NCBI GenBank assembly: GCA_025617745.1
Contig: CM046870.1
Coordinates: forward strand, 25,215,501 to 25,279,500
From: Heliocidaris erythrogramma
Lineage: Eukaryota > Echinodermata > Echinoidea > Camarodonta > Echinometridae
DNA: 64,000 nt
Direction: 5' to 3'
The first letter of the stretch is position 1; every line of letters starts with the position of its first letter. The notes beneath the pieces are model-generated. The model made no database searches, had not been told where the DNA came from, and saw nothing but the letters and a program-made list of their open reading frames with translations. The position numbers and the translations under genes were made by a program. Shown one piece after another: positions 14,201 to 32,200 of the stretch.

Positions 14201-17200
14201 TGTGCATTTTTGGCTATATTTAATTGAAACTTATATACTGCAATTTACTTAAATCCAAATATTTATGTTGAATAATAAATACCAGGTTGTTTTGTGACCT
14301 TTGAAGAGGGTTTCCTGAAATTTTGGGTCCTTTTTGTCGATAACTGCTATCGAGACTGTCCCGTCAGCATCCAGTTTGTATTTTTCACGATTATGATGAA
14401 GGGAGCCCTCAGCGCTCGTAGTAGTACCGGCGCGATCGGTTCGTCGATCTCCTACGAAGACCTGGAAGGGCCAAACTGACGACGTAAAAAAATAAAAAAT
14501 ATTACGTACGTACGTAATAATTACTACGTACGTACGTAATATTTTTAAATTTTTTTACGCCGTCAGTTTGACCCTTCCAGGTCTTCGTAGAATAGCTTGT
14601 GTGCGTAACATTCTGCGTACGTATCTACGGTGCGTAACCATGTAGAGCGGCCTCACTAGTGCGCAACATATTGAGAGCAGTCGTCATCCGTATGGAGGTG
14701 TGGGTAACAAGTACCAAAAAGAGGGCTGTAAATGTAAGTTTTTATAACTTTCTACATTTTGTATCTTAACGAACTGATAACTTAAAATCTAAAGAATGAT
14801 ACTTAAGTATCAGTTTGCCCACAAAAACCTCCATTTCAAACAAAATTACATCTGTATCCCCAATACCCAGTATACACACATGTACATGTATATGATCCTA
14901 ATGGTCAATATGACCATTGCTTGCTGATGTGGTCGTACCGTCTGTCTATGGGGAAGGTTGAGAAATGTCAGAAATATTAAAGATTTCCCCATAACAGACG
15001 GTTATTTCTGTCTAGGCATTGCCTGGCCTGGGCCGGCTAGCCAGGACTAGCTTCCTGAGTGTAAAAAAAGATCTACGCCTTTAAAGTTTTAGTTTTACAT
15101 CACGAAGCTAGGTGTTTTATTCCGCCATTCTAACTGCGCACGGTTAGCAGGTCAACTGGTCATGAAAAATGCCCTGGAATATCACTTTCCTGATAACTCC
15201 CGCGACCGACAGGTTCTTCTTCACCACAGCATCTCCTCCTACATGTCCTACTAGGCTAGGGAAACTTTTGGAATGTTTGTTTTCGATTTTTTAAAAGTAT
15301 TTATTTCAAAAAAATCAAAAATATAGGATAAAAAATTTGCGAAAACTCACCAGTGTTTGTGTATTCATGCCTCCTCTTGTCATGCAGTTTTTAAAATGGC
15401 AGCTGCGTGCGATACAATCATAATCAAAACTACGATGTGGTGCAGTGGTGGAGATTTCCATTAATGCTAAATGTTGAGGTCTCAACTGGCTTAGGGCCAT
15501 CTACGTTGACTTTTTGTTTAGCATTAATGGAAATTTTGTCAGACATCACCACTGTACCACATCGTATTATTTCGATTATGGTTGTATCGCAGACAGCGCG
15601 CCAATGAGTATTGACATTACTATTATTGATGTCACGGAGTTGTCGTTTATCATGTCTTCGTGAAACAGTTTGTCAGGTCCATAACATTTCTGTTGATCGC
15701 TGACAAGAGTTATGACTGTCATGGAGTTGATTTGATGAAACGACCCCCACACCACTCATCTGCTCATAGCTACATTCCTATACTTCGTGTGTATAATGAA
15801 GGCAGTCATACACCTCAACTTTTTAAAACACCACTGCACAAAAGACACCAACATTCACTCAAAATCGGCATTTAATTTACAAAAACCGACCCCAAAATAT
15901 TCAAGAAATACAATAAATTCAACTCACCGATGTTGGAAAATATATTTCCAAAAATGAAATCCGTAATTTACTGTCGATTCTCGCGAAACGAGCTATCGGA
16001 GTCATTGTGTACATTTCCTTGTCGCCACGGGCGCTGACATCTCCCCAAAAGAGTTTTGTCCTTAAAAATTTGGTCCCTATATGGCGTACACGGAAAAGTC
16101 CCGATTTTATGTGTGCGCGATCGTAAAGATCGATGTGCGCTTGCGATCCCGAGTTTTTCGTGGACAAAAATTTTATTGGCCGATTTTAGTCTAAGACATC
16201 GGCAGTATGTAAACAACACGCGATCGCGAAACAAATCGGCGGGGATTTCTCCGGTTTTGGACAAGATTTTGACTTTGGATTTTGCTGAAAATATCAAAAG
16301 TTCTTCCTAACGGCCATTTGAGGTAGGAGTGAGATTTTTAAGGGCTGAATTTGAAAGCAAGTATTTAAAATATTTATCTCATTTCTCTCCCCATACCTTT
16401 ACTACACGCGACAGAAAATACCAACTTTTTTTGCATATTGTATTCGTAGTGGTCAATATGACCACTATTCGTGGTGTGCCCCAGACATTTAATTCTAAGA
16501 AGAATAGGTCCACAGTTTATTCATCTGTGCAATTTTTTCATATTCATCATTGTTTCTCTTTTACAGCTGCTTCAGGAAGCAGTGCGCCCTCACATAGAAT
16601 CCTTCAATTACATGCTAGACGACGGACTAGCCCAAGCCGTCAGGAATATCACCCCAGTGGAGTTTCTTTTAGAGGATGAAAGAATCGCGCTTTCGTACGA
16701 GGTGAGCATGAACCATCATCCACATGTGTATGACATTGTTTAAGTTTTAGTGCAAATTTCTCCTCTGCCTCCTTCTCCTCCTCCTCCTCCTCCTCTCCTC
16801 ACACCCCCACTACTAGCACCACCTCCATCTCCATCTTGTCTCCATTTTTCGAAGCCTCCAGCACCTCCTATCTTTCTCTACCTCTTCCTCTCCCTCCTCA
16901 GGACTCTCTCTTCCACTTCCCTTCCCCTTCCCCTTCCTCTCCCTCCTCCTCCTCCTCCTCTCCCTCCTCCTCCTCCTCCTCTCCCCTCCTCCTCCTCCTC
17001 CTCTCCCTCCTCCTCCTCCTCCTCCTCTCCCTCCTCCTCCTCCTCCTCTCCCTCCTCCTCCTCCTCCTCTCCCTCCTCTCCCTCCTCCTCTCCTCCTCCT
17101 CCTCTCCCTCCTCCTCCTCCTCCTCCTCCTCTCCCTCCTCCTCCTCCTCTCCCTCCTCCTCCTCCTCTCCCTCCTCCTATCCCTCCTCCTCTCCCTCCTC

Positions 17201-20200
17201 CTATCCCTCCTCCTCCTCCTCCTCCTCCTCCTCTCCATCCTCTCCTCCTGTCCATCCTGTCCATCTTACCCCTCCACCTCATTCTCCTATATTTACTCTG
17301 CCTCCTCTTCCTCTCCCCTCCTCTCCATCTTACCTCTCCATCTTACCTCTCCACCCTCATTCTCCTACATGTAGTCTGCCTCCTCTTCCTCTCCCTCCGG
17401 TACACTGTCGCTTGGTCTACCACCACTTGGTCTAATCATCAGTTCGTCGAACTCCATATGGTCTTACTTCATTTTGTCGACAGCCAGTTTGTCTTACTTC
17501 CAATTTCGTCTAATTTCCATTTGGCCTAATAACCAATTCGTCTAATACACAGTTTGGCTAACCCCATTTAGTCTAAATTTTCATATAGTCTAATGACCAT
17601 TAGTCCTAATGACCATTTGGTCTATAGGCTTACTATTTATTCTTCTGGTCATTTAGTAACAAGTTGAGAAAGGAAAGGGAAATGAAACTTTAAAAAATGA
17701 AACTTCAAAGAAGTCATCTATACGTAAAGGTGCATTAAAAGAGTTATTCACCTTGCTGCTGCTTATATCAAGTCAATCAATATCCCTACATTTTATATAT
17801 TAATTATCTAATTTATTAAAATCAATTATTTAGTATTATTTTTTAGTAATTAAAACAATCCTAGGTCTTCTCTTCCTTTCATGACTTAAGTATACTAGAA
17901 GAACCCGATTTTTTATTGCGCTTAAAATTATGTTTGGTGGGTTGATAATCTGTTATTCATGGTTCTTATTTGATATCCGATGTACAAATTTGCAAGTAGT
18001 CAATAAAAGCTAGGAGCGGTGCCAGGGTATTTTCATAGGAGGGGCACTTGGGGTTTCAACGAACTGGGTACCGTTTTTGGAAAAGGGGGAACTTAATTAT
18101 AAAGGGTGAAGACAAAATGGGAAATGGCGTTTTGATACGTTGCTGTACCCCTACATTGTACTTAACACGCATGAAATGTTAAGAATATATTTTCTAATCT
18201 TTGCATAATATGCAATTCTGCCTTACTCCTAACTTGCAAGCGAGCGACCAAAAATATGTTCTTGTTGGAGGTCATACATGATACTTGCATTATATTGATT
18301 TCATGACGAAGATGCCGCAAAAGCGTTTAATTTCAAGCATAATCTCTCAATAAAAGAGATAGATAGACTTTATGTGACTGCCATGAGTTACAATAAGTGA
18401 GTGCGAGCGAGCGTAGCGAGCAAGCTTCGGCCGGGGGATATCTTAATTGCTGCAATATTATTAAACTTTTGGGCACTGTGTCCCCAGCTCTGGCTAAGTT
18501 CCTGCTCAAAGGTGTCACACTGTTGTCATATCAAGAACTAAATATTCTCCCATTAAGCTTCTCTGATTCTTTTGAGCTATGCAAACTGCTATTTTCAGGG
18601 GCGGCGCCACAGGGGGGGGGGGAGGGGGCAGGGGCGGTTGCCCGCTATGATTTTTCAAGTGACTTAAAAGAGAGAGAGAGAGAGAGAGAGAGAAAAAGAA
18701 GAAAAACAACAAAAGAAGGAGAAGAAGAAAGAAAATTATGCAACTATTATTATTATTATAATTATTATCATCATCATTATTGGTATAGAATTAATCAGTT
18801 GGATAACATGAAATAATGAAGTTAATTATTCAATTGTCTCCAACGGCCACCAGAAGGTGGTAACACACGCAACTGCTGTGTGATAGGTTGCTCGACTGCT
18901 GTGAAAAAAAATCACAGGCAGACCGAGCGGGATTCGAACCAGAAGGTGGTGGCCGTTGGAGACAATTGAATAATTAACTTCATTATTTCATGTTACCCAA
19001 CTGATTAATTCTATACCATTGATTTGACATCATATGAATGGGATAGTTCGAACCTATACCACTAAGGGCACTCCAGTGGTCTAGTGGTTATGACGCTGGT
19101 CTAGTAACCCAGAGGTCGCGGGTTCGAATCCCGCTCGGTCTGCCTGTGATTTTTTTTTCACAGCAGTCGAGCAACCTATCACACAGCAGTTGCGTGTGTT
19201 ACCACCTTCTGGTGGCCGTTGGAGACAATTGAATAATTAACTTCATTATTTCATGTTACCCAACTGATTAATTCTATACCATTGATTTGACATCATATGA
19301 ATGGGATAGTTCGAACCTATACCACTAAGGGCACTCCGGTGGTCTAGTGGTTATGACGCTGGTCTAGTAACCCAGAGGTCGCGGGTTCGAATCCCCGCTC
19401 GGTCTGCCTGTGATTTTTTTCACAGCAGTCGAGCAACCTATCACAAAGCAGTTGCGTGTGTTAAGCCCCAGTCCCATATAGGCCCCGGATAACCCCGGAT
19501 TAGTCCGTAGCGATCCGGGGTCCGATCCGTTACTTGGCCGGAATGGTCCGGAATGGTCCTTGTATGTCCGGGATGATCCTTGGGCATCCGCCAACGTCCT
19601 GGGGGTAGTCCCGGAAGTTTCTGACTGTCAAAAACTTCCGGGATGATCCGTGACGAGCGTTCATCCGTAGTCATCCTGGACAAAACCGGGACACATCCTG
19701 GAATCCGCCGGGTAGGTCCGTATCGGTCCTGGAAGGTCCGTGAAGCCGCCTGCATGGTCCTGGACGATCCTAGACAGTCCGGGAAGGAAAAATACATGCC
19801 GGATCATCCCGTTTGACATACGGACTGTTACGGAATGTTCAGGACCATGCCGGCGGCTTCACTTCAGAACACATTGACATATCAATAAAATATTCAACAG
19901 TAACAACAGTTACAGTTCAGATCATTCAGTTCATCCGGGACTATCCGTAACTCTGCCTGGATGGTCCTGGACTCTGCCGGGATGAACCGGGATGATCCGG
20001 GCCTGTCCGGGACGGTCCGGGGTCACATCCGGGGTGGTCCTGGACTCTGCCGGGATGATCCTGGACTCTGCCTGGAAGGTCCGTTACTCTACCGGGACTA
20101 TCCGGGCCGGTATGCAACTGAGAGGAAATCTTGCATTTTTTCGTGGTCCGGGATGAAAATCATCCCGGATTAGGTCCCGGCAGTCCGTGATAGATCCGGT

Positions 20201-23200
20201 GCTTCAGATCCGGGGTGTCCCCATATGGGACTGTAGCTTTACCACCTTCTGGTGGCCGTTGGAGACAACTGAATAATTAACTTCATTATTTCATGTTACC
20301 CAACTGATTAATTCTATACCATTGATTTGACATCATATGAATGGGATAGTTCGAACCTATACCACTAAGGGCACTCCGGTGGTCTAGTGGTTATGACGCT
20401 GGTCTAGTAACCCAGAGGTCGCGGGTTCGAATCCCGCTCGGTCTGCCTGTGATTTTTTTTTCACAGCAGTCGAGCAACCTATCACAAAGCAGTTGCGTGT
20501 GTTACCACCTTCTGGTGGCCGTTGGAGACAATTGAATAATTAACTTCATTATTTCATGTTACCCAACTGATTAATTCTATACCATTGATTTGACATCATA
20601 TGAATGGGATAGTTCGAACCTGTACCACTAAGGGCACTCCGGTGGTCTAGTGGTTATGACGCTGGTCTAGTAACCCAGAGGTCGCGGGTTCGAATCCCCG
20701 CTCGGTCTGCCTGTGATTTTTTTCACAGCAGTCGAGCAACCTATCACAAAGCAGTTGCGTGTGTTACCACCTTCTGGTGGCCGTTGGAGACAATTGAATA
20801 ATTAACTTCATTATTTCATGTTACCCAACTGATTAATTCTATACCATTGATTTGACATCATATGAATGGGATAGTTCGAACCTATACCACTAAGGGCACT
20901 CCGGTGGTCTAGTGGTTATGACGCTGGTCTAGTAACCCAGAGGTCGCGGGTTCGAATCCCGCTCGGTCTGCCTGTGATTTTTTTTTCACAGCAGTCGAGC
21001 AACCTATCACACAGCAGTTGCGTGTGTTACCACCTTCTGGTGACCGTTGGAGACAATTGAATAATTAACTTCATTATTTCATGTTACCCAACTGATTAAT
21101 TCTATACCATTGATTTGACATCATATGAATGGGATAGTTCGAACCTATACCACTAAGGGCACTCCGGTGGTCTAGTGGTTATGACGCTGGTCTAGTAACC
21201 CAGAGGTTGCGGGTTCGAATCCCGCTCGGTCTGCCTGTGATTTTTTTTTCACAGCAGTCGAGCAACCTATCACACAGCAGTTGCGTGTGTTACCACCTTC
21301 TGGTGGCCGTTGGAGACAATTGAATAATTAACTTCATTATTTCATGTTACCCAACTGATTAATTCTATACCATTGATTTGACATCATATGAATGGGATAG
21401 TTCGAACCTATACCACTAAGGGCACTCCGGTGGTCTAGTGGTTATGACGCTGGTCTAGTAACCCAGAGGTCGCGGGTTCGAATCCCGCTCGGTCTGCCTG
21501 TGATTTTTTTTTCACAGCAGTCGAGCAACCTATCACAAAGCAGTTGCGTGTGTTACCACCTTCTGGTGGCCGTTGGAGACAATTGAATAATTAACTTCAT
21601 TATTTCATGTTACCCAACTGATTAATTCTATACCATTGATTTGACATCATATGAATGGGATAGTTCGAACCTATACCACTAAGGGCACTCCGGTGGTCTA
21701 GTGGTTATGACGCTGGTCTAGTAACCCAGAGGTCGCGGGTTCGAATCCCCGCTCGGTCTGCCTGTGATTTTTTTCACAGCAGTCGAGCAACCTATCACAA
21801 AGCAGTTGCGTGTGTTACCACCTTCTGGTGGCCGTTGGAGACAATTGAATAATTAACTTCATTATTTCATGTTACCCAACTGATTAATTCTATACCATTG
21901 ATTTGACATCATATGAATGGGATAGTTCGAACCTATACCACTAAGGGCACTCCGGTGGTCTAGTGGTTATGACGCTGGTCTAGTAACCCAGAGGTCGCGG
22001 GTTCGAATCCCGCTCGGTCTGCCTGTGATTTTTTTTTCACAGCAGTCGAGCAACCTATCACACAGCAGTTGCGTGTGTTACCACCTTCTGGTGACCGTTG
22101 GAGACAATTGAATAATTAACTTCATTATTTCATGTTACCCAACTGATTAATTCTATACCATTGATTTGACATCATATGAATGGGATAGTTCGAACCTATA
22201 CCACTAAGGGCACTCCGGTGGTCTAGTGGTTATGACGCTGGTCTAGTAACCCAGAGGTTGCGGGTTCGAATCCCGCTCGGTCTGCCTGTGATTTTTTTTT
22301 CACAGCAGTCGAGCAACCTATCACACAGCAGTTGCGTGTGTTACCACCTTCTGGTGGCCGTTGGAGACAATTGAATAATTAACTTCATTATTTCATGTTA
22401 CCCAACTGATTAATTCTATCCCATTGATTTGACATCATATGAATGGGATAGTTCGAACCTATACCACTAAGGGCACTCCAGTGGTCTAGTGGCTATGACG
22501 CTGGTCTAGTAACCCAGAGGTCGCGGGTTCGAATCCCCGCTCGGTCTGCCTGTGATTTTTTTCACAGCAGTCGAGCAACCTATCACAAAGCAGTTGCGTG
22601 TGTTACCACCTTCTGGTGGCCGTTGGAGACAATTGAATAATTAACTTCATTATTTCATGTTACCCAACTGATTAATTCTATCCCATTGATTTGACATCAT
22701 ATGAATGGGATAGTTCGAACCTATACCACACTCCGGTGGTCTAGTGGTTATGACGCTGGTCTAGTAACCCAGAGGTCGCGGGTTCGAATCCCGCTCGGTC
22801 TGCCTGTGATTTTTTTTTCACAGCAGTCGAGCAACCTATCACAAAGCAGTTGCGTGTGTTACCACCTTCTGGTGGCCGTTGGAGACAATTGAATAATTAA
22901 CTTCATTATTTCATGTTACCCAACTGATTAATTCTATACCATTGATTTGACATCATATGAATGGGATAGTTCGAACCTATACCACTAAGGGCACTCCGGT
23001 GGTCTAGTGGTTATGACGCTGGTCTAGTAACCCAGAGGTCGCGGGTTCGAATCCCCGCTCGGTCTGCCTGTGATTTTTTTCACAGCAGTCGAGCAACCTA
23101 TCACAAAGCAGTTGCGTGTGTTACCACCTTCTGGTGGCCGTTGGAGACAATTGAATAATTAACTTCATTATTTCATGTTACCCAACTGATTAATTCTATA

Positions 23201-26200
23201 CCATTGATTTGACATCATATGAATGGGATAGTTCGAACCTATACCACTAAGGGCACTCCGGTGGTCTAGTGGTTATGACGCTGGTCTAGTAACCCAGAGG
23301 TCGCGGGTTCGAATCCCGCTCGGTCTGCCTGTGATTTTTTTTTCACAGCAGTCGAGCAACCTATCACACAGCAGTTGCGTGTGTTACCACCTTCTGGTGA
23401 CCGTTGGAGACAATTGAATAATTAACTTCATTATATCATCATTATTATTATCATTATTTCTTCATCTAAAACGTAAATTAACTCGCTCGTTGGCGGGGTG
23501 CACAATCCCCCCTTTCCAAGCACCGAAAAAGTGTCTCCTGCTACCCACAAAAATGCCGCTTTTTATACTTGTTCACTGCCTTCTTTTTCTTCTTTTAAGG
23601 CAGTGGCGTATATAGGTATTATGACGCCCTGGGCAAACAGTGAACAAAATGACGCATAGTGTTGTTGGTAGGTGCGTAGAAGAAAAGGGAATAGCCCAAC
23701 AGGCAATTAGCCTTAGTGATAATAAGACAAAGTGATGTTTAGACAAATTGGCATTTAGACCAACTGGCAATTAGACTAAATGGAAAATGGACTAAATGAA
23801 AGTTAGACCAACTGCTCATTAGACCATATAAATGCCATGTAGACCAAATTGATACTAGACCAAGTGGATTTAAGACGAAATGCCTGTAGGCCAACTAGTT
23901 TTAGACTGACTGGGAATTAGACAAACTGACATTAGACGAACTGGTAGTAGACTAAGTGACAACAAAATAAAGTAGACGAAATGGTAATTAGACCAAATGG
24001 TAATTAGACCGAGTGATAATTAGCCCAAGTGGTCATTAGACCTTCTGGTTATTAGACCAAGAGCAAATTAGACCAAATGAAGAGTGGACCAAAAGGGTTT
24101 AGCCCGAATGAAGGTAGCCCATCTGGAAATTAGACCAAGTGATTTTAGCCCAAGCGTGCATAAACCCTCCCTCCTCAGGAATCTTTCTCTTCCACGTCCC
24201 CTTTCTCTCCCTCCTCTTCCTCCTCTTCATCTTACTCCTCCACCTCATTCTCCTACATTTAGTCTGCCTCCTCTGCCTCTTTCTGTGCTTCTTCCTCCTC
24301 CCCCTCCCCATCTTTCACCTCCACATCTTCCTCCTACTCTGCCTCATCTGGCTCTTTCTCTGCATCTTCTTCCTTCTCTGGATTATCTTCCTCTTCCTTC
24401 TCCTTCACCTCTTCCTCTTCTTCCTCCCCATCCTATTATTAACACATTCATTTGGGTGTCCATGTTTTCTATGAAGTGCAGCGTATAATTCAGATTTCAT
24501 CAATGTTTGATTGCCTGTTCATCTGTTGGTTTATTTTCTTTAGGATGCATCCATTGGTATTCCAACCATCGCTAGAGGAAACCTGTTTGCTTCCACTCTC
24601 AAAGTGTACCCTTCTGAGGTAGGTTCTTTTGAACCCGTAGCAGTACAGTACTCCTTTTAGTGACGTTTTTATGCCTTGGCCCACCGAAGGTGGTGCCATG
24701 CCAGAGGCATTATGTTTTCAGATTGTCCGTACATACGTCTGTCTATCCGTCTGTCCCACTTTCTTGTTAACATGATATCCCTATCGTTTTCTTGGAACAG
24801 TTACAAAAGATTAGCTTTTGGGGTACGTAGGTCAAAGGTCAAGGTCACAGAGGTCAATTCTGAATTTTCAGGTGTTAGCCTCTTTCTCGCAATAACTCAA
24901 GAACCATTTGAGGTATGAACTTCAAACTTGATGCTTTTATGCATCACTGCAGTAAGACAAACTGATAAGATTTTGGGGTAAGTAGGTCAAAGGTTGAAGG
25001 TCACAGGTCAGTGACCATGAAATTTCATTTTTTTAGCAACGTTAACGCGATATCTCAAGAACCATTTGACGTTTGAACTTCAAACTTGGTGCTATTATGT
25101 ATCACCGTTAGAAGACGCTCTGATTAGATTTTTATTTACGTAGGTCAGAGGTCAGAGGTCAAAGGTCAGTGAGGTCAGTATGCATGAAATTAAGATTTGT
25201 TAGTTTTGTTATCACTGTATCCCAACTATTTTGTATACATTACTAGGAGGAGATAATGTGATCGGACTTTCAGTTTTTTTTAGGTCAAAGGTCAAAGACG
25301 TCAATTAAAGGGATAGTTCACCCTGATTACAAGTTGGTTTTAAAAGAAGCAGAAAAATTAAAGAAACGGATCAGTGAAGGTTTGACCAAAATCCGATCAG
25401 AAATAAGAAAGTTATGAATTTTTGAAGTGGTAATCAATCAGACACAAATTGGCAAAAATTCTCCGTGACGTATCTTGCGAGCTCCTCTCCCATTTGCCCT
25501 GTATACCCAAAATCATAAATTTTCATTTTCTCTAAAGGAAATATTCAATCATACATGCACCTTAGATATAATCATTGCTCATATGTTTTTTACACAAAAC
25601 CTGTATGAAACAAATATATTTCTTCATCAAAAACTAAGAAAATGAAAATTTATGAAATTTTCTGTATCGAGCAAATAGAGGAGCTCGCAAGATATGTCAC
25701 GGAGTTGCCAATTTGTGTCTGATTGATTACAACTTCAAAAATTCATAACTTTCTTATTTATTATCGGATTTTGCTCAAACTTTCACCGATCTGTTTCTTT
25801 AATTTTTCTGCTTCTTTTAAAGCCAACTTGTAATCAGGGTGGACTATCTCTTTAACATGTAATTGTAGGCTACTTATTCTGGTTATCACAATATTTCAAG
25901 AACAGTTGGAGTCATGAACTTAACTGAATTTAGGCAGAGGCATATAGGAGACGCAGTCGCATTCATCCTGTTTGAATTATCTTTTGATCCAGAATGATAG
26001 GAATTACACATTATACATGAGCAGGAGAAGCATAAATCATACACAATTTTGAGTCTATTTCCAATGCAGTACATTGTGCCGTTTACGAGTAACGGCGATT
26101 TGATTCTAACTGAACATTAAAAGTCTCTACATTGGCAACACGGTTTAAAATATATAATCACTATTTTCGTGTACAAATTGGCAATTTTTCTTTTATTCAT

Positions 26201-29200
26201 TCACACTAGTTAATTTAATAAACATTTTTATTTTATTTCAAATTATGTAGGAGTGGAAACTAAGAACAATTGTTGCCAATTTGAGGAGGGAAAACTGATA
26301 AATTTAGACCATAGGAAAACTCTGAACTGCTCTGGGTTAAGGTGAAGTCCACTCTGAGAATATGTTAATTTTATTAAAAGAAGAACTTTTAGAGAAACAC
26401 ATCAGTGAAAATTTGAGAAGATCTGATAAAGAAAATGCAAATAAGCAATTCTGTGACCTTCCTTTGAGCCCCTCGCCCATTTGATGTGAACTGAAAATTC
26501 CAGAATTTCCCCATTGTTAATGATAAAGAATTAGATCTCTTTTGTAGATTTTATTTTGTAGAAAGGGTGTGTAAAAACATATCCAATAATGTATCTCAGG
26601 TACAGGTATGATGAAATATTTCCTTTGGAAACAAATTGACTTTACATGTATGAAACAATTACACAACTGTCTCTAAAGACATTGAACATTTTCTCATTTG
26701 AATCCATATTAGGGAGACATGTCTTATGGATTATAGACCTATGAAGACTGACTACTTGTTTTTCTTGAGTGGTCTTTATATCCTGGTTGGACTACAATTT
26801 TTTTTTAGAAGTTCTTACCAAATGTTTGCAATACAGCAAACCCTGCTTTAGCAACTACCTGTATAGAAAGACCACCTTTGTATTAAGACCACATTGTTTT
26901 GTTTCCCTTACATAGTGATTCACATGAAAATATGTCTTGAAAGAACCTGTGTATAAAGACCATCTGCCTGTGGAGAATACGTTTGTCTTCCTTGAGCGGT
27001 CTTTGTATACAGGTTTCACCGTGTGTCCTTTCTCTCACAGTGTCGGCAACGTGGGACAACGTACGCAGCTCCTGTACAAGCGAGGGTGCACTGGCAGAGT
27101 AGCAATGGTGATAGTGGGAGTGTGATGCGTCCTCTAGGACAGATACCACTCCTTGTCAAAGTAAGTTGACTTACCAGAAGACCAGGATGTTTCTTCCTAT
27201 TTGGTTCAAAATAAACTTGAGTTTTCATAATGATGGTGAAGAATTTAAAAAAAAAAATCAAACACAGGCTAAAGATCTTTTACGTTTCTTTGTCGTGTAA
27301 GAACTGCAACCCTTCAAACATAATGGGATTTCTGTCCATGTTTGACATTTCTTTGTAGTGTAAGAACTCCAACCTTTCGTACATAACAGGATTTCCGTCC
27401 ATCTTTGCCGTTTCTTTGTAGTGTAAGAACTCCAACCTTTCGTACATAACAGGATTTCTGTCCATCTTTGCCGTTTCTTTGTAGTGTAAGAACTCCAATC
27501 TTTCAAACATAACAGGATTTCTTTCCATCTTTGACATTTCTTTGTAGTGTAAGAACTCCAACCTTTCGTACATAACAGGATTTCTGTCCATCTTTGCCAT
27601 TTCTTTGTAGTGTAAGAACTGCAATCTTTCAAACATAACAGGATTTCTGTCCATCTTTGCCATTTCTTTGTAGTGTAAGAACTCCAACCTTTCGTACATA
27701 ACAGGATTTCTTTCCATCTTTGCCGTTTCTTTGTAGTGTAAGAAGTGCAATCTTTCGAACATAACAGGATTTCTGTCCATCTTTGCCATTTTTGTCTCGC
27801 CCACCGGAGGTGAAGGCGAGACTAAGGGATCCAAATGTCGTCCGTCGTCCGTCCGTCCGTCCGTCACAAACGTTATGACAGATAACTTTGCAACCGTCAC
27901 TCACTTTTCGACCAAACTTGGGTTGTAGATGCACTGAGGGGACCTGCATGTTATGGTGCCGTTGGAGGTCACATGATAAGGTCAAAGGTCATTTCAGGTC
28001 AAACGTTAAAGTTTACCTGCAAGACTCTCTTATGACAGATAACTTTGCAACCGTCACTCACTTTTCAACCAAACTTGGGTTGTAGATGCACTGAGGGGAC
28101 CTGCATGTTATGGTGCCGTTGGAGGTCACATGATAAGGTTAAAGGTCATTTCAGGTCAAACGTTAAAGTTTACCTGCAAGACTCTCTTATGACATAACTT
28201 TGCAACCGTCACTCACTTTTCAACCAAACTTGGGTTGTAGATGCACTGAGGGGACCTGCATGTTATGGTGCCGTTGGAGGTCACATGATAAGGTTAAAGG
28301 TCATTTGAGGTCATACGTTAAAGTTTACCTGCAAGACTCTCTTATGACAGATAACTTTGCAACCGTCACTCACTTTTCAACCAAACTTGGGTTGTGGATG
28401 CACTAAGGGGATCTGCATGTTATGGTGCCGTTGGAGGTCACATGATAAGGTCAAAGGTCATACGTTAAAGTTTACCTGCAAGACTCTCTTATGACAGATA
28501 ACTTTGCAACCATCACTCACTTTTCAACCAAACTTGGGTTTTAGAAGCACTTGGGGGACCTGCATGTTATGCTGCCATCAGAGGTCACATGGTAAGGTCA
28601 AAGGTCATTTCAGGTCCAACATTATAGTTTACCCGCAAGACTCTCTTATGACATAACTTTGTAAACGTCACTTTCCAAACAGTAATGTAGATATATGCAC
28701 TTGGGGGACCAATTGCATGGCAACAGAGATCACGATATTTCTAGTTTTCGCATGTGGGCGAGACACATTATCGCTAATGCCTTGTTTTGTAGTGTAAGAA
28801 CAGCAATCTTTCGAACATAATGGGATTTCTTTGTAGTTTTAGAACCGTAACCTTTCAAACATAACAGGATTTCTGTCCATCTTTGCCATTTCGTTGTAGT
28901 TTAAGAACTGCAATCTTTCAAACATAATAGGATTTCTGTCCATCTTTGCCATTTCTTTGTAGTGTAAGAACTGCAACCTTCCGAACATAACAGGATTTCT
29001 GTCCATCTTTGACATTTCTTTGTAGTGTAAGAACTGCAATCTTTTGAACATAACAGGATTTCTGTCCATATTTGACATTTCTTTGTAGTGTAAGAACTGC
29101 AACCTTTTCAACATAACAGGATTTCTGTCCATATTTGACAATTCTTTGTAGTGTAAGAACTGCAATCTTTCGAACATAATGGGATTTCTGTCCATCTTTG

Positions 29201-32200
29201 ACATTTCTTTGTAGTGTAAGAACTCCAACCTTTCGTACATAACAGGATTTCTGTCCATCTTTGCCATTTCTTTGTAGTTTAAGAACTGCAACCTTTCAAA
29301 CATAACAGGATTTCTGTCCATCTTTGCCATTTCTTTGTAGTGTAAGAACTGCAACCTTCCGAACATAACAGGATTTCTGTCCGTCTTTGCCATTTCTTTG
29401 TAGTTTAAGAACTGCAATCTTTCAAACATAATGGGATTTCTGTCCATCTTTGACATTTCTTTGTAGTTTTAGAACTGTAACCTTTCAAACATAACAAGAT
29501 TTCTGTCCATCTTTGCCATTTCTTTGTAGTTTAAGAACTGCAATCTTTCAAACATAATAGGATTTCTGTCCATCTTTGCCATTTCTTTGTAGTGTAAGAA
29601 CTGCAACCTTCCGAACATAACAGGATTTCTGTCCATCTTTGCCATTTCTTTGTAGTTTAAGAACTGCAATCTTTCAAACATAACAGGATTTCTGTCCATC
29701 TTTGCCATTTCTTTGTAGTGTAAGAACTGCAACCTTTTGAACATAACAGGATTTCTGTCCATATTTGACAATTCTTTGTAGTGTAAGAACTGCAATCTTT
29801 CAAACATAATATGATTTCTGTCCATCTTTGCCATTTCTTTGTAGTGTAAGAACTGCAACCTTTTGAACATAACAGGATTTCTGTCCATCTTTGACATTTC
29901 TTTATAGTGTAAGAACTGCAACCGTTTGAACATAACAGGATTTCTGTCCATATTTGACAATTCTTTGTAGTGTAAGAAACTGCAATCTTTTAAACATAAC
30001 AGGATTTCTGTCCATCTTTGCCATTTCTTTGTAGTGTAAGAACTGCAACCGTTTGAACATAACAGGATTTCTGTCCATCTTTGACATTTCTTTGTAGTGT
30101 AAGAACTGCAATCTTTTGAACATAACAGGATTTCTGTCCATCTTTGCCATTTCTTTGTAGTGTAAGAACTGCAACCTTTCGTACATAACAGGATTTCTCT
30201 CCATCTTTGCCATTTCTTTGTAGTGTAAGAACTGCAACCTTTTGAACATAACATGATTTCTCTCCATCTTTGCCATTTCTTTGTAGTTTAAGAACTGCAA
30301 CCTTTTGAACATAACAGGATTTCTGTCCATCTTTGCCATTTCTTTGTAGTGTAAGAACTGCAACCTTTTGAACATAACAGGATTTCTGTCCATCTTTGCC
30401 ATTTCTTTGTAGTGTAACAACTGCAACCTTTCGTACATAACAGGATTTCTGTCCATCTTTGACATTTCTTTGTAGTGTAAGAACTGCAACCTTCACAACC
30501 TGTCGCCCAGTGAGCTGATCAAGAGAAAGGAAGAGAGCTGTGAGATGGGAGGCTACTTCATCGCCAATGGCATTGAGAAGGTCATCAGAATGCTTGTCAT
30601 GCCAAGAAGGAACTTTGTAAGTGCATCTTCCTTGAACTTAAAATTCTAGTTACAGGAATTTCTCTGTGAAATGCATCACGGTTTGCTCACACAGGACTTT
30701 GTAGGATCGCAAACTTTTTGTGCAGCGAAAAGAGGGGGGGTGGAGTTGTTGGGGATCATCCCATTTGGGATTACTCTGAACTAGGTCGAACATTCAGGTT
30801 ACGTACTTTATGAGGGCCATTTATTTTGACAAACTTCCCTCGTTGGTGGATTTTTAAGAGTATTTGGGTGGTGACCTGTCAGTCTTAACAGTGAATATAA
30901 GTCCATGGATCTATATAACATACATGTATGTTATCATATGAATACCAGAGCAGTGTCAAAGTCTTCAGATGAACCCAAGATTAACTCTTTTACTCTCACT
31001 GTGCCAAGGGGTTTAGCGCTCATCAAAATGTTACCAAAATGTGATCAATGCTTACTTTTCAAATGTCTGCACTTCATTAACCATCTATTATTTCACAAAA
31101 TATTGTGTACAAAACTTGTAATAAATTTATTACCATTTCTTATGATACCAAACATTATTACTTTACCCAACTTTAAAATTTCTATAGTAGCATATGATTA
31201 TAATCATATATATTTAGAATGCTTGATTTATGCTCAAAATTGTGATATACATTGACCGCCATACACCTTTACTGTTTTCAAGTAATTGGTGAATGAATAT
31301 AACAAGTCTATCTGTCACATATATGTGACATCGGCACTGAAAGAGGTAATACCTCAGTCACATCGTCAGACAGACCCCAAAACAACCATGAACCGACAAA
31401 ATCTGTGCCATTTGGGGTGATGTTGGCAAGGGTAATTTTTATGTCAGTTTTACATGTATGTTGGTTTGTTATCTGGGTGTCAGCCAGTGTGAATTGTATG
31501 AAATTAATGATAATTTTGGGGCATGTTTACTTTCCAACGCAGCCGATGGCCATCGACCGTCCCAAGTGGAAGACCAGAGGGAAAGGCTTTACGGAGTTTG
31601 GTATCCAGATGAGGTGTGTGCGGAATGACCAGTCAATAGTCGTAAGTACAGATTTTAAGAATATTGTGGGAATCAAATTTTGATTTAAAAAAAAGAAGAA
31701 ATCTTTAGGGTCATAGTTGTCACTGTCAGACAATATGAGATATGTCCATAATGATCAGTCATTGGTCGCAATTACAAATTTTAGCTTTTAAGAATTCACG
31801 AAGGAACTGTAAAGGATCCTTTTTTTTCCTCCAAAAAAAGGTTCACAATAGCCAGTGTCAGATAATATGAGATGTGTCCTTATCAGTCATTGGCCTTAAG
31901 TACAAATTTTAGCTTTCAAGAATTTAGGAAACCTATAGAGCATCTTATTTCCTGAAAGGTTCATGATAGTTGGTGTTAGGTAATGTGATATGTGTCAATA
32001 ATGGTTAGTTGGTCATAAGTACACATTTGAGCTTTCAAGAATGCAGGAATGAACCCACGCTGAGATTCAGTTGGTAAAATACCCCCACCCCCCAGCATTT
32101 GGTGAGCAAAAAATATGTGACCCCAATTCTAGTACTGAATCTGAGCTTGCAAGTATGTTACATGACTGAACTTATAGTGATCAATTTGAGCTAAGGGTGT

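What the first reader, a model, noticed from the sequence alone, without database searches (positions are those of the whole stretch)
27276..30616. About 35 tandem decoy copies of POLR1B exon 5's own 3' splice site
Seen directly: the 63-bp repeat that fills intron 4 contains the end of that intron (pyrimidine tract, TTTCTTTGTAG) and the first 18 nt of the exon (TGTAAGAACTGCAACCTT), and the final unit runs into the real exon. Almost every unit therefore offers the same acceptor as the true site. Entry at a decoy would read the array in the protein frame for 21 codons and hit TAG, so it would create a premature stop. The acceptor is also followed one base later by GTAAGA, a 5' splice-like word, so each unit could act like a one-base recursive splice point. 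Inference: the array must be skipped reliably, may slow or regulate POLR1B splicing, or may make unproductive isoforms. I know of no described case of this size; this is not a literature search.
Basis: partly seen in the sequence, partly recalled or inferred. Interest (0 to 1): 0.85.

Follow-up and report, generated by a model that had tools for sequence, protein, structure and literature searches.

The report
Gene's splice site copied 35 times
In a single-copy essential gene, a 63-base stretch holding the boundary where one coding block begins has been copied head to tail about 35 times just upstream, so the cell must pick the one correct splice site out of a row of near-identical false ones; it looks like a tolerated local DNA stutter and a ready-made natural test of how splice sites are chosen.

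Summary
Intron 4 of POLR1B (27161-30475) carries 36 acceptor positions, mostly 63 bp apart; the last (30476) starts exon 5, and 34 of the 35 upstream copies keep AG. By a score trained on 22 other introns of the gene, 26 of 35 copies equal or beat the real site. The array consensus equals the exon's first 18 bases, which encode residues partly conserved to yeast, so the repeat was made from the exon boundary, not the reverse. Two searches of the 1.06-Gb assembly found the unit only here, and one found exon 5 once. All 35 copies lead to an in-frame stop before exon 5. One-base recursive splicing would add a T per step, breaking the frame unless repeated in threes; 27 of 36 positions keep the donor-like word. 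I found no convincing sign that units are purged or preserved. Best reading: a boundary-spanning minisatellite made by tandem duplication, tolerated because the real site is the acceptor closest to exon 5's own donor (exon definition, inferred). Donor-side counterparts (ABCA7, IFI6) and a single-duplication acceptor case (potato RdRp) are published, so this is an unusually long acceptor-side variant. Use of decoys is untested: no RNA data.

The parts
27041..27160 (+). POLR1B exon 4; donor AAA|GTAAGT at its end. Start 27041 read by eye; one search's 27013 came from a forced join over a missing exon
   Evidence: donor score 7.56, mean of 22 others 7.86
27275..27792 (+). array block 1: acceptor positions 27296 (AG lost, TCG), 27359, 27422, 27485, 27548, 27611, 27674, 27737; similarity to the unit begins at unit position -21
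27793..28765 (.). insert splitting the array: inverted ends TGTCTCGCCCAC/GTGGGCGAGACA and 5.2 copies of a 157-bp repeat at 27873-28672; transposon-like (inference)
   Evidence: its search in the genome did not complete
28779..30475 (+). array block 2: 27 upstream acceptor positions (28793 to 30413; one unit shortened by 19 bp between 28793 and 28837, one with a 1-bp insertion after 29971) and the intronic part of the last unit. Left end approximate (TRF row begins 28786)
30431..30493 (+). last unit: -45..-1 of intron 4 plus the first 18 nt of exon 5; holds the real acceptor TTTCTTTGTAG|TGTAAG
30476..30616 (+). POLR1B exon 5 (141 nt, [14 protein letters not shown]...RRNF), donor TTT|GTAAGT
31735..31782 (+). 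decayed 48-bp copy of the end of the next exon and its donor (31609-31656), 126 bp downstream; donor position now GCAATT
   Evidence: 0 of 1000 shuffles as good

Best explanation
It is a minisatellite born from the gene's own intron 4/exon 5 boundary. A 63-bp segment (45 nt of intron end, 18 nt of exon) was tandemly duplicated; after each such event the downstream copy stays the exon start and the upstream copy becomes intron, so the protein is unchanged and the array can grow. Later multi-unit duplications and one insertion shaped it (read from the sequence). The real acceptor is not stronger than its copies; it is chosen, I infer, because it alone lies next to the exon 5 body and closest to exon 5's donor (exon definition, cross-exon proximity). 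Leakage to the nearest decoy (204-nt exon) and to the first decoys near exon 4 (198- and 261-nt introns, within reach of intron definition) is expected and would be degraded by nonsense-mediated decay (inferred). No selected function is needed.
For: Consensus of 32 complete units and exon 5 agree at 18 of 18 exonic positions, and the exon keeps RPA2 homology inside and beyond the shared part ([11 protein letters not shown] against SKLCNLRNLPP in human; C and L of CNL kept in the yeast and archaeal rows shown), so the exon is the source. The unit was found only in this intron: 9 of 9 and 20 of 20 genome matches. Units ten apart are nearly identical in places (0-2 differences), a trace of block duplication. 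Exonic and intronic parts of the units diverge equally (5.2% and 5.1%). AG loss is 1 of 35 against 3.6 expected (P about 0.13): no sign of purging. Exon 5 gives one match in the genome and 23 of 24 exon joins read on in frame with the human protein, so correct splicing presumably works. For exons flanked by long introns, sites closest across the exon are preferred (PMC9225289, abstract and passages). Two other local copies of exon pieces lie in introns of this gene.
Against: No RNA was seen. Exon length alone separates the real site poorly from 30413 (204 nt; the gene's other exons reach 207 nt). A 306-fold preference over a mean decoy is needed for 90% productive splicing if all 34 AG copies compete (arithmetic), which may need extra help. 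PMC9225289 reports for 3' sites that the upstream preference is significantly reduced under exon definition, not reversed (passage). Nothing like unit positions -45..-21 was found upstream of the array. The last 10 intron nt are as invariant as or more than all but one of 63 circular windows, and first codon positions of the exonic part vary least (0.5% against 7.8% and 7.3%, six positions each); either could hint at constraint.
Confidence: 0.75

Rival explanations
1. Regulatory sink: decoy acceptors divert a share of POLR1B transcripts into unproductive, decayed mRNA, so copy number or splicing-factor level tunes RNA polymerase I.
For: 34 AG-bearing decoys, many of real-site strength; all lead to stops; the array is rich in TTCT/TCTT words (66 per kb against 15 in the window), recalled as PTB-like motifs.
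Against: No excess conservation of the exon part or of AG beyond chance; position test marginal; no expression or comparative data.
Confidence: 0.1
2. Serial recursive splicing: intron 4 is removed in 63-nt steps using the GTAAGA one base after each acceptor.
For: 27 of 36 positions carry T|GTAAG; the donor rebuilt on exon 4 scores 6.9 against 7.56 for the normal donor; reconstituted donors are real and repressed by the exon junction complex in human cells (PMC6224609, passages).
Against: Each step leaves a T; only multiples of three keep frame, adding Phe. Ratchet points have AG|GT with nothing between (recalled). 9 of 36 positions lack the donor word.
Confidence: 0.04
3. A pre-existing satellite inserted here and by chance supplied exon 5's start.
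For: The genome holds other arrays: 4 with period 30 or more and 5 or more copies in a 200-kb sample.
Against: Unit found nowhere else in two searches; the shared 18 nt encode conserved residues.
Confidence: 0.03
4. Assembly artefact (false expansion or collapse).
For: Tandem arrays are hard to assemble; reads not available.
Against: 32 complete units differ by 8.2% on average and an insert splits them; false duplication would tend to give identical copies.
Confidence: 0.05

Closest known systems
ABCA7 intron 18 VNTR (human; PMC5954066, passages read)
   Same: Repeat array touching an exon; its first two bases are the exon's donor GT; about 12 to 427 units; use of a decoy donor with retention of one unit, and a frameshift, were observed.
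   Different: Donor side, 25-bp unit; length variation and RNA shown there, not here.
[quoted passage not shown] title only, in reference lists; paper not held; that it is IFI6/6-16 is recalled)
   Same: Minisatellite supplying repeated splice sites to one transcript.
   Different: Donor side; short units (recalled).
Potato RdRp intron gain by tandem duplication (PMC4974935, abstract and results section)
   Same: Duplication crosses an intron-exon boundary, copies branch site, tract and acceptor, and uses a GTAAG from the exon.
   Different: One duplication there, with a new intron shown by 106 RNA reads; here 35 extra copies, splicing unseen, and the GTAAG lies one base after AG.
Recursive splice sites / RS-exons (PMC6224609, passages)
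   Same: Joining the upstream exon to the unit rebuilds a donor.
   Different: One-base offset leaves a T; many tandem copies.

Membership tests
Minisatellite overlapping a splice site | Head-to-tail units of about 10-100 bp | tested here: met
   63 bp, 8.0 and 26.5 copies
Minisatellite overlapping a splice site | Unit includes the real splice site of an adjacent exon | tested here: met
   last unit = real acceptor and 18 nt of exon 5
Minisatellite overlapping a splice site | Copy number varies between individuals | not testable with these tools
   one assembly, no reads
Minisatellite overlapping a splice site | Repeat copies used as splice sites in RNA | not testable with these tools
   no RNA data
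Recursive (ratchet) splice site | AG immediately followed by GT (recalled) | tested here: not met
   of 36 positions: AG-T-GTAAG 26, AG-TTT 8, AG-T-GTAAC 1, CG-T-GTAAG 1
[quoted passage not shown]
   6.9 against a range of 3.5-11.5 for 22 donors of the gene
Recursive (ratchet) splice site | Lariats or intermediates | not testable with these tools
   no RNA data
[quoted passage not shown]
[quoted passage not shown]
   no RNA data
Poison-exon regulation | Inclusion creates a premature stop | tested here: met
   35 of 35 upstream positions
Poison-exon regulation | Conserved across species and regulated | not testable with these tools
   no relatives held

The most novel reading that the evidence does not exclude
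A copy-number-tunable 3' splice-site array: the row of decoys runs from intron-definition distance of exon 4 (first AG decoy makes a 198-nt intron) to the exon-definition site of exon 5, and the competition along it sets how much productive POLR1B mRNA is made, so allele length adjusts ribosome production. The only decoy that lost its AG is the one nearest exon 4, as that model would allow (1 of 35; edge decay explains it equally).
Probability: 0.08. Interest if true: 0.85.

Novelty: new variant of a known kind. Interest (0 to 1): 0.5.

Why it matters
Splice-site choice among duplicated sites has been studied with one or a few engineered copies (recalled). Here a gene found once in its genome holds 34 AG-bearing acceptor copies of similar strength, laid out from 198 to 3,252 nt after the donor, with the real one last. 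Junction counts along it would measure, in one molecule, how intron length, exon length and order of transcription weigh in the choice. It also shows how a boundary can be duplicated many times without changing the protein, a path by which exons' own ends become intronic repeats.

Tried and rejected
Left edge: by eye (a note says so too firmly) the sequence before 27275 looked like a gapped copy of unit positions -45..-21; the alignment test did not support it (121 and 146 of 2000 shuffles as good, best alignment elsewhere), so I do not claim a whole number of units.

Selection on decoys: tested by AG loss (P about 0.13), exon part against intron part (equal), distance of copies from the real unit along the array (rho -0.09, p 0.62), codon positions in the exonic part (0.5%, 7.8%, 7.3%; third position not in excess, so no coding signature), and the position profile (last 10 intron nt: 2 of 63 circular windows as low or lower, itself included). 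No convincing sign for or against. These tests ignore shared ancestry of units.

RNA loop-out: no long inverted repeats bracket the array (minimum 14 nt; one 21-nt imperfect palindrome at its left edge).

Other introns of the gene as controls: of 22 introns under 4 kb scored for boundary copies, intron 4 scored 83 at the acceptor side, one scored 41 at the donor side, the other boundaries 28 or less. A first alignment of the donor-side case was a self-match and was redone.

Dropped before counts: per-position and pairwise unit statistics used 32 of 36 units (27296, 28793, 28837, 29971 left out as partial or shifted); the splice score used 22 of 24 joined introns (intron 4 and one forced join over a missing exon left out); exon lengths include two unsure ones (16567-16727 and 27013-27160) for that reason. 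Joins considered GT-AG only, so GT-AG ends are by construction. The splice score is a simple matrix from this gene, not MaxEnt.

Not obtained: copies of the insert in the genome and a mismatch pattern search; the species.
Full report
What was checked. The window lies at G000:C18:25215501-25279500 of a 1.06-Gb, 26-contig assembly of unnamed species. A recalled human POLR1B protein maps exon by exon over 10691-50267 on the + strand; exon 5 alone finds human RPA2 and yeast RPA135 in the PDB at E 5e-16 and 3e-13. I joined 24 pairs of neighbouring matches by the best GT-AG pair (GT-AG by construction); 23 read on in frame with the human protein and one was forced over an exon not in the match list, a likely candidate for which lies near 24544-24618 (weak match, E 0.04). 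Intron 4 runs 27161-30475, phase 0: VK | CKNCNL.

The array. Units of 63 bp occupy about 27275-27792 and 28779-30493. There are 36 acceptor positions; 35 have AG (34 copies and the real one); the 5'-most reads TCG. Each of 32 complete units has ACATAA(C/T) about 36 nt before the AG, a branch-site-like word by recall, then a pyrimidine-rich stretch. The real unit differs from its closest copies at 2 of 63 positions. With a matrix from 22 other introns of the gene the real acceptor scores 6.51, inside the gene's range (0.2 to 14.2), and 26 of 35 copies score as high or higher; the 126 other AGs in the intron score at most 6.0. So nothing that this score sees within the unit marks the real site.

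Where it came from. The consensus of 32 complete units equals the first 18 nt of exon 5 exactly. Those 18 nt encode CKNCNL, against SKLCNL in human, and homology continues into the exon past the point where the units diverge. Searches of the whole assembly with 425 and 126 bases of the array found only this intron, 9 of 9 and 20 of 20 places (the tool warns that counts are lower bounds and that common words are skipped). The exon is therefore the likely source. The 32 units differ by 8.2% on average, and some units ten apart are nearly identical, so blocks of several units were also duplicated. A 973-bp insert with 12-bp inverted ends and its own 157-bp tandem repeats splits the array, so it came after the array began. 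Exonic and intronic parts of the units have diverged equally.

Consequences. If a copy is used, the mRNA reads 20 codons and stops in 28 of 35 cases, and stops before exon 5 in 35 of 35 (one of the 35 has no AG). The donor-like word stands at 27 of 36 positions. Rebuilt on exon 4 it scores 6.9, beside 7.56 for the normal donor and 5.99 for exon 5's donor, so even correctly joined exons 4 and 5 carry a possible re-splicing donor; human data show such donors are held down by the exon junction complex (PMC6224609, passages). Each recursive step would leave one T: one or two give stops, three add Phe. Recursion is thus no silent way through the array.

How the real site is chosen (inference). Intron 4 is 3,315 nt and the next intron 926 nt. 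In human data, alternative sites flanked by long introns tend to pair closest across the exon, and the change from intron to exon definition falls near 250 nt; for 3' sites the upstream preference is reduced in that setting (PMC9225289, abstract and passages). The real acceptor makes a 141-nt exon; the copies make 204, 267 and so on up to 3,321 nt. The nearest copy would still be within the gene's exon sizes, up to 207 nt, and the first AG-bearing copies would make introns of 198 and 261 nt, so those two places are where leakage should appear. If all 34 copies competed, the real site would need a 306-fold advantage over a mean copy for 90% correct splicing (arithmetic).

Is it functional? Exon 5 gave one match in the assembly, so the gene must cope. 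AG was lost in 1 of 35 copies against 3.6 expected from the mean divergence, P about 0.13; the last ten intronic positions rank second of 63 circular windows for low variation; first codon positions vary least in the exonic part. None of these proves purging or upkeep. The array is rich in TTCT/TCTT (66 per kb against 15 in the window), words I recall as PTB-binding; this follows from a repeated pyrimidine tract and shows no function.

How unusual. In 20 sampled stretches (200 kb) there were 4 arrays of period 30 or more with 5 or more copies, and none of period 20 or more with 10 or more. If such a density held genome-wide and the gene set were of ordinary size (recalled), some units should catch an exon boundary by chance. 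In the same gene, the end of the next exon and its donor have a 77%-identical 48-bp copy 126 bp downstream with a changed donor, and the intron before the exon at 47718 holds a copy of that exon's interior; 0 of 1000 shuffles matched either. So local copying of exon pieces recurs here and this array is the long extreme.

Literature. ABCA7 is the mirror image on the donor side, with about 12 to 427 units and observed retention of one unit (PMC5954066, passages). A minisatellite giving multiple donors in an interferon-induced transcript is known to me by title. Potato RdRp has a single duplication across an acceptor boundary that activated a GTAAG (PMC4974935, abstract and results). No acceptor-side array of this size was listed, which cover only open-licence PMC papers and a few word choices.

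Verdict. Its worth lies in the natural experiment it offers, not in a shown function. On checking, facts were mended without changing the odds.

Noticed in passing
31735-31782: Decayed copy (77% over 48 bp) of an exon end and its donor (31609-31656), 126 bp downstream; its donor position now reads GC. A second boundary-spanning copy in the same gene.
   Followed up: partly
47530-47586: Degraded copy of the interior of the next POLR1B exon (about 47758-47812) lying in the preceding intron.
   Followed up: partly
27793-28765: Transposon-like insert with 12-bp inverted ends and an internal 157-bp tandem array of 5.2 copies; an 11-base end motif also at 37067-37077.
   Followed up: no
20239-23439: 263-bp tandem repeat, 12.2 copies at 97% match, with about two more copies of what looks like the same unit at 18947-19463, in POLR1B introns upstream of the 24544 exon candidate.
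   Followed up: no
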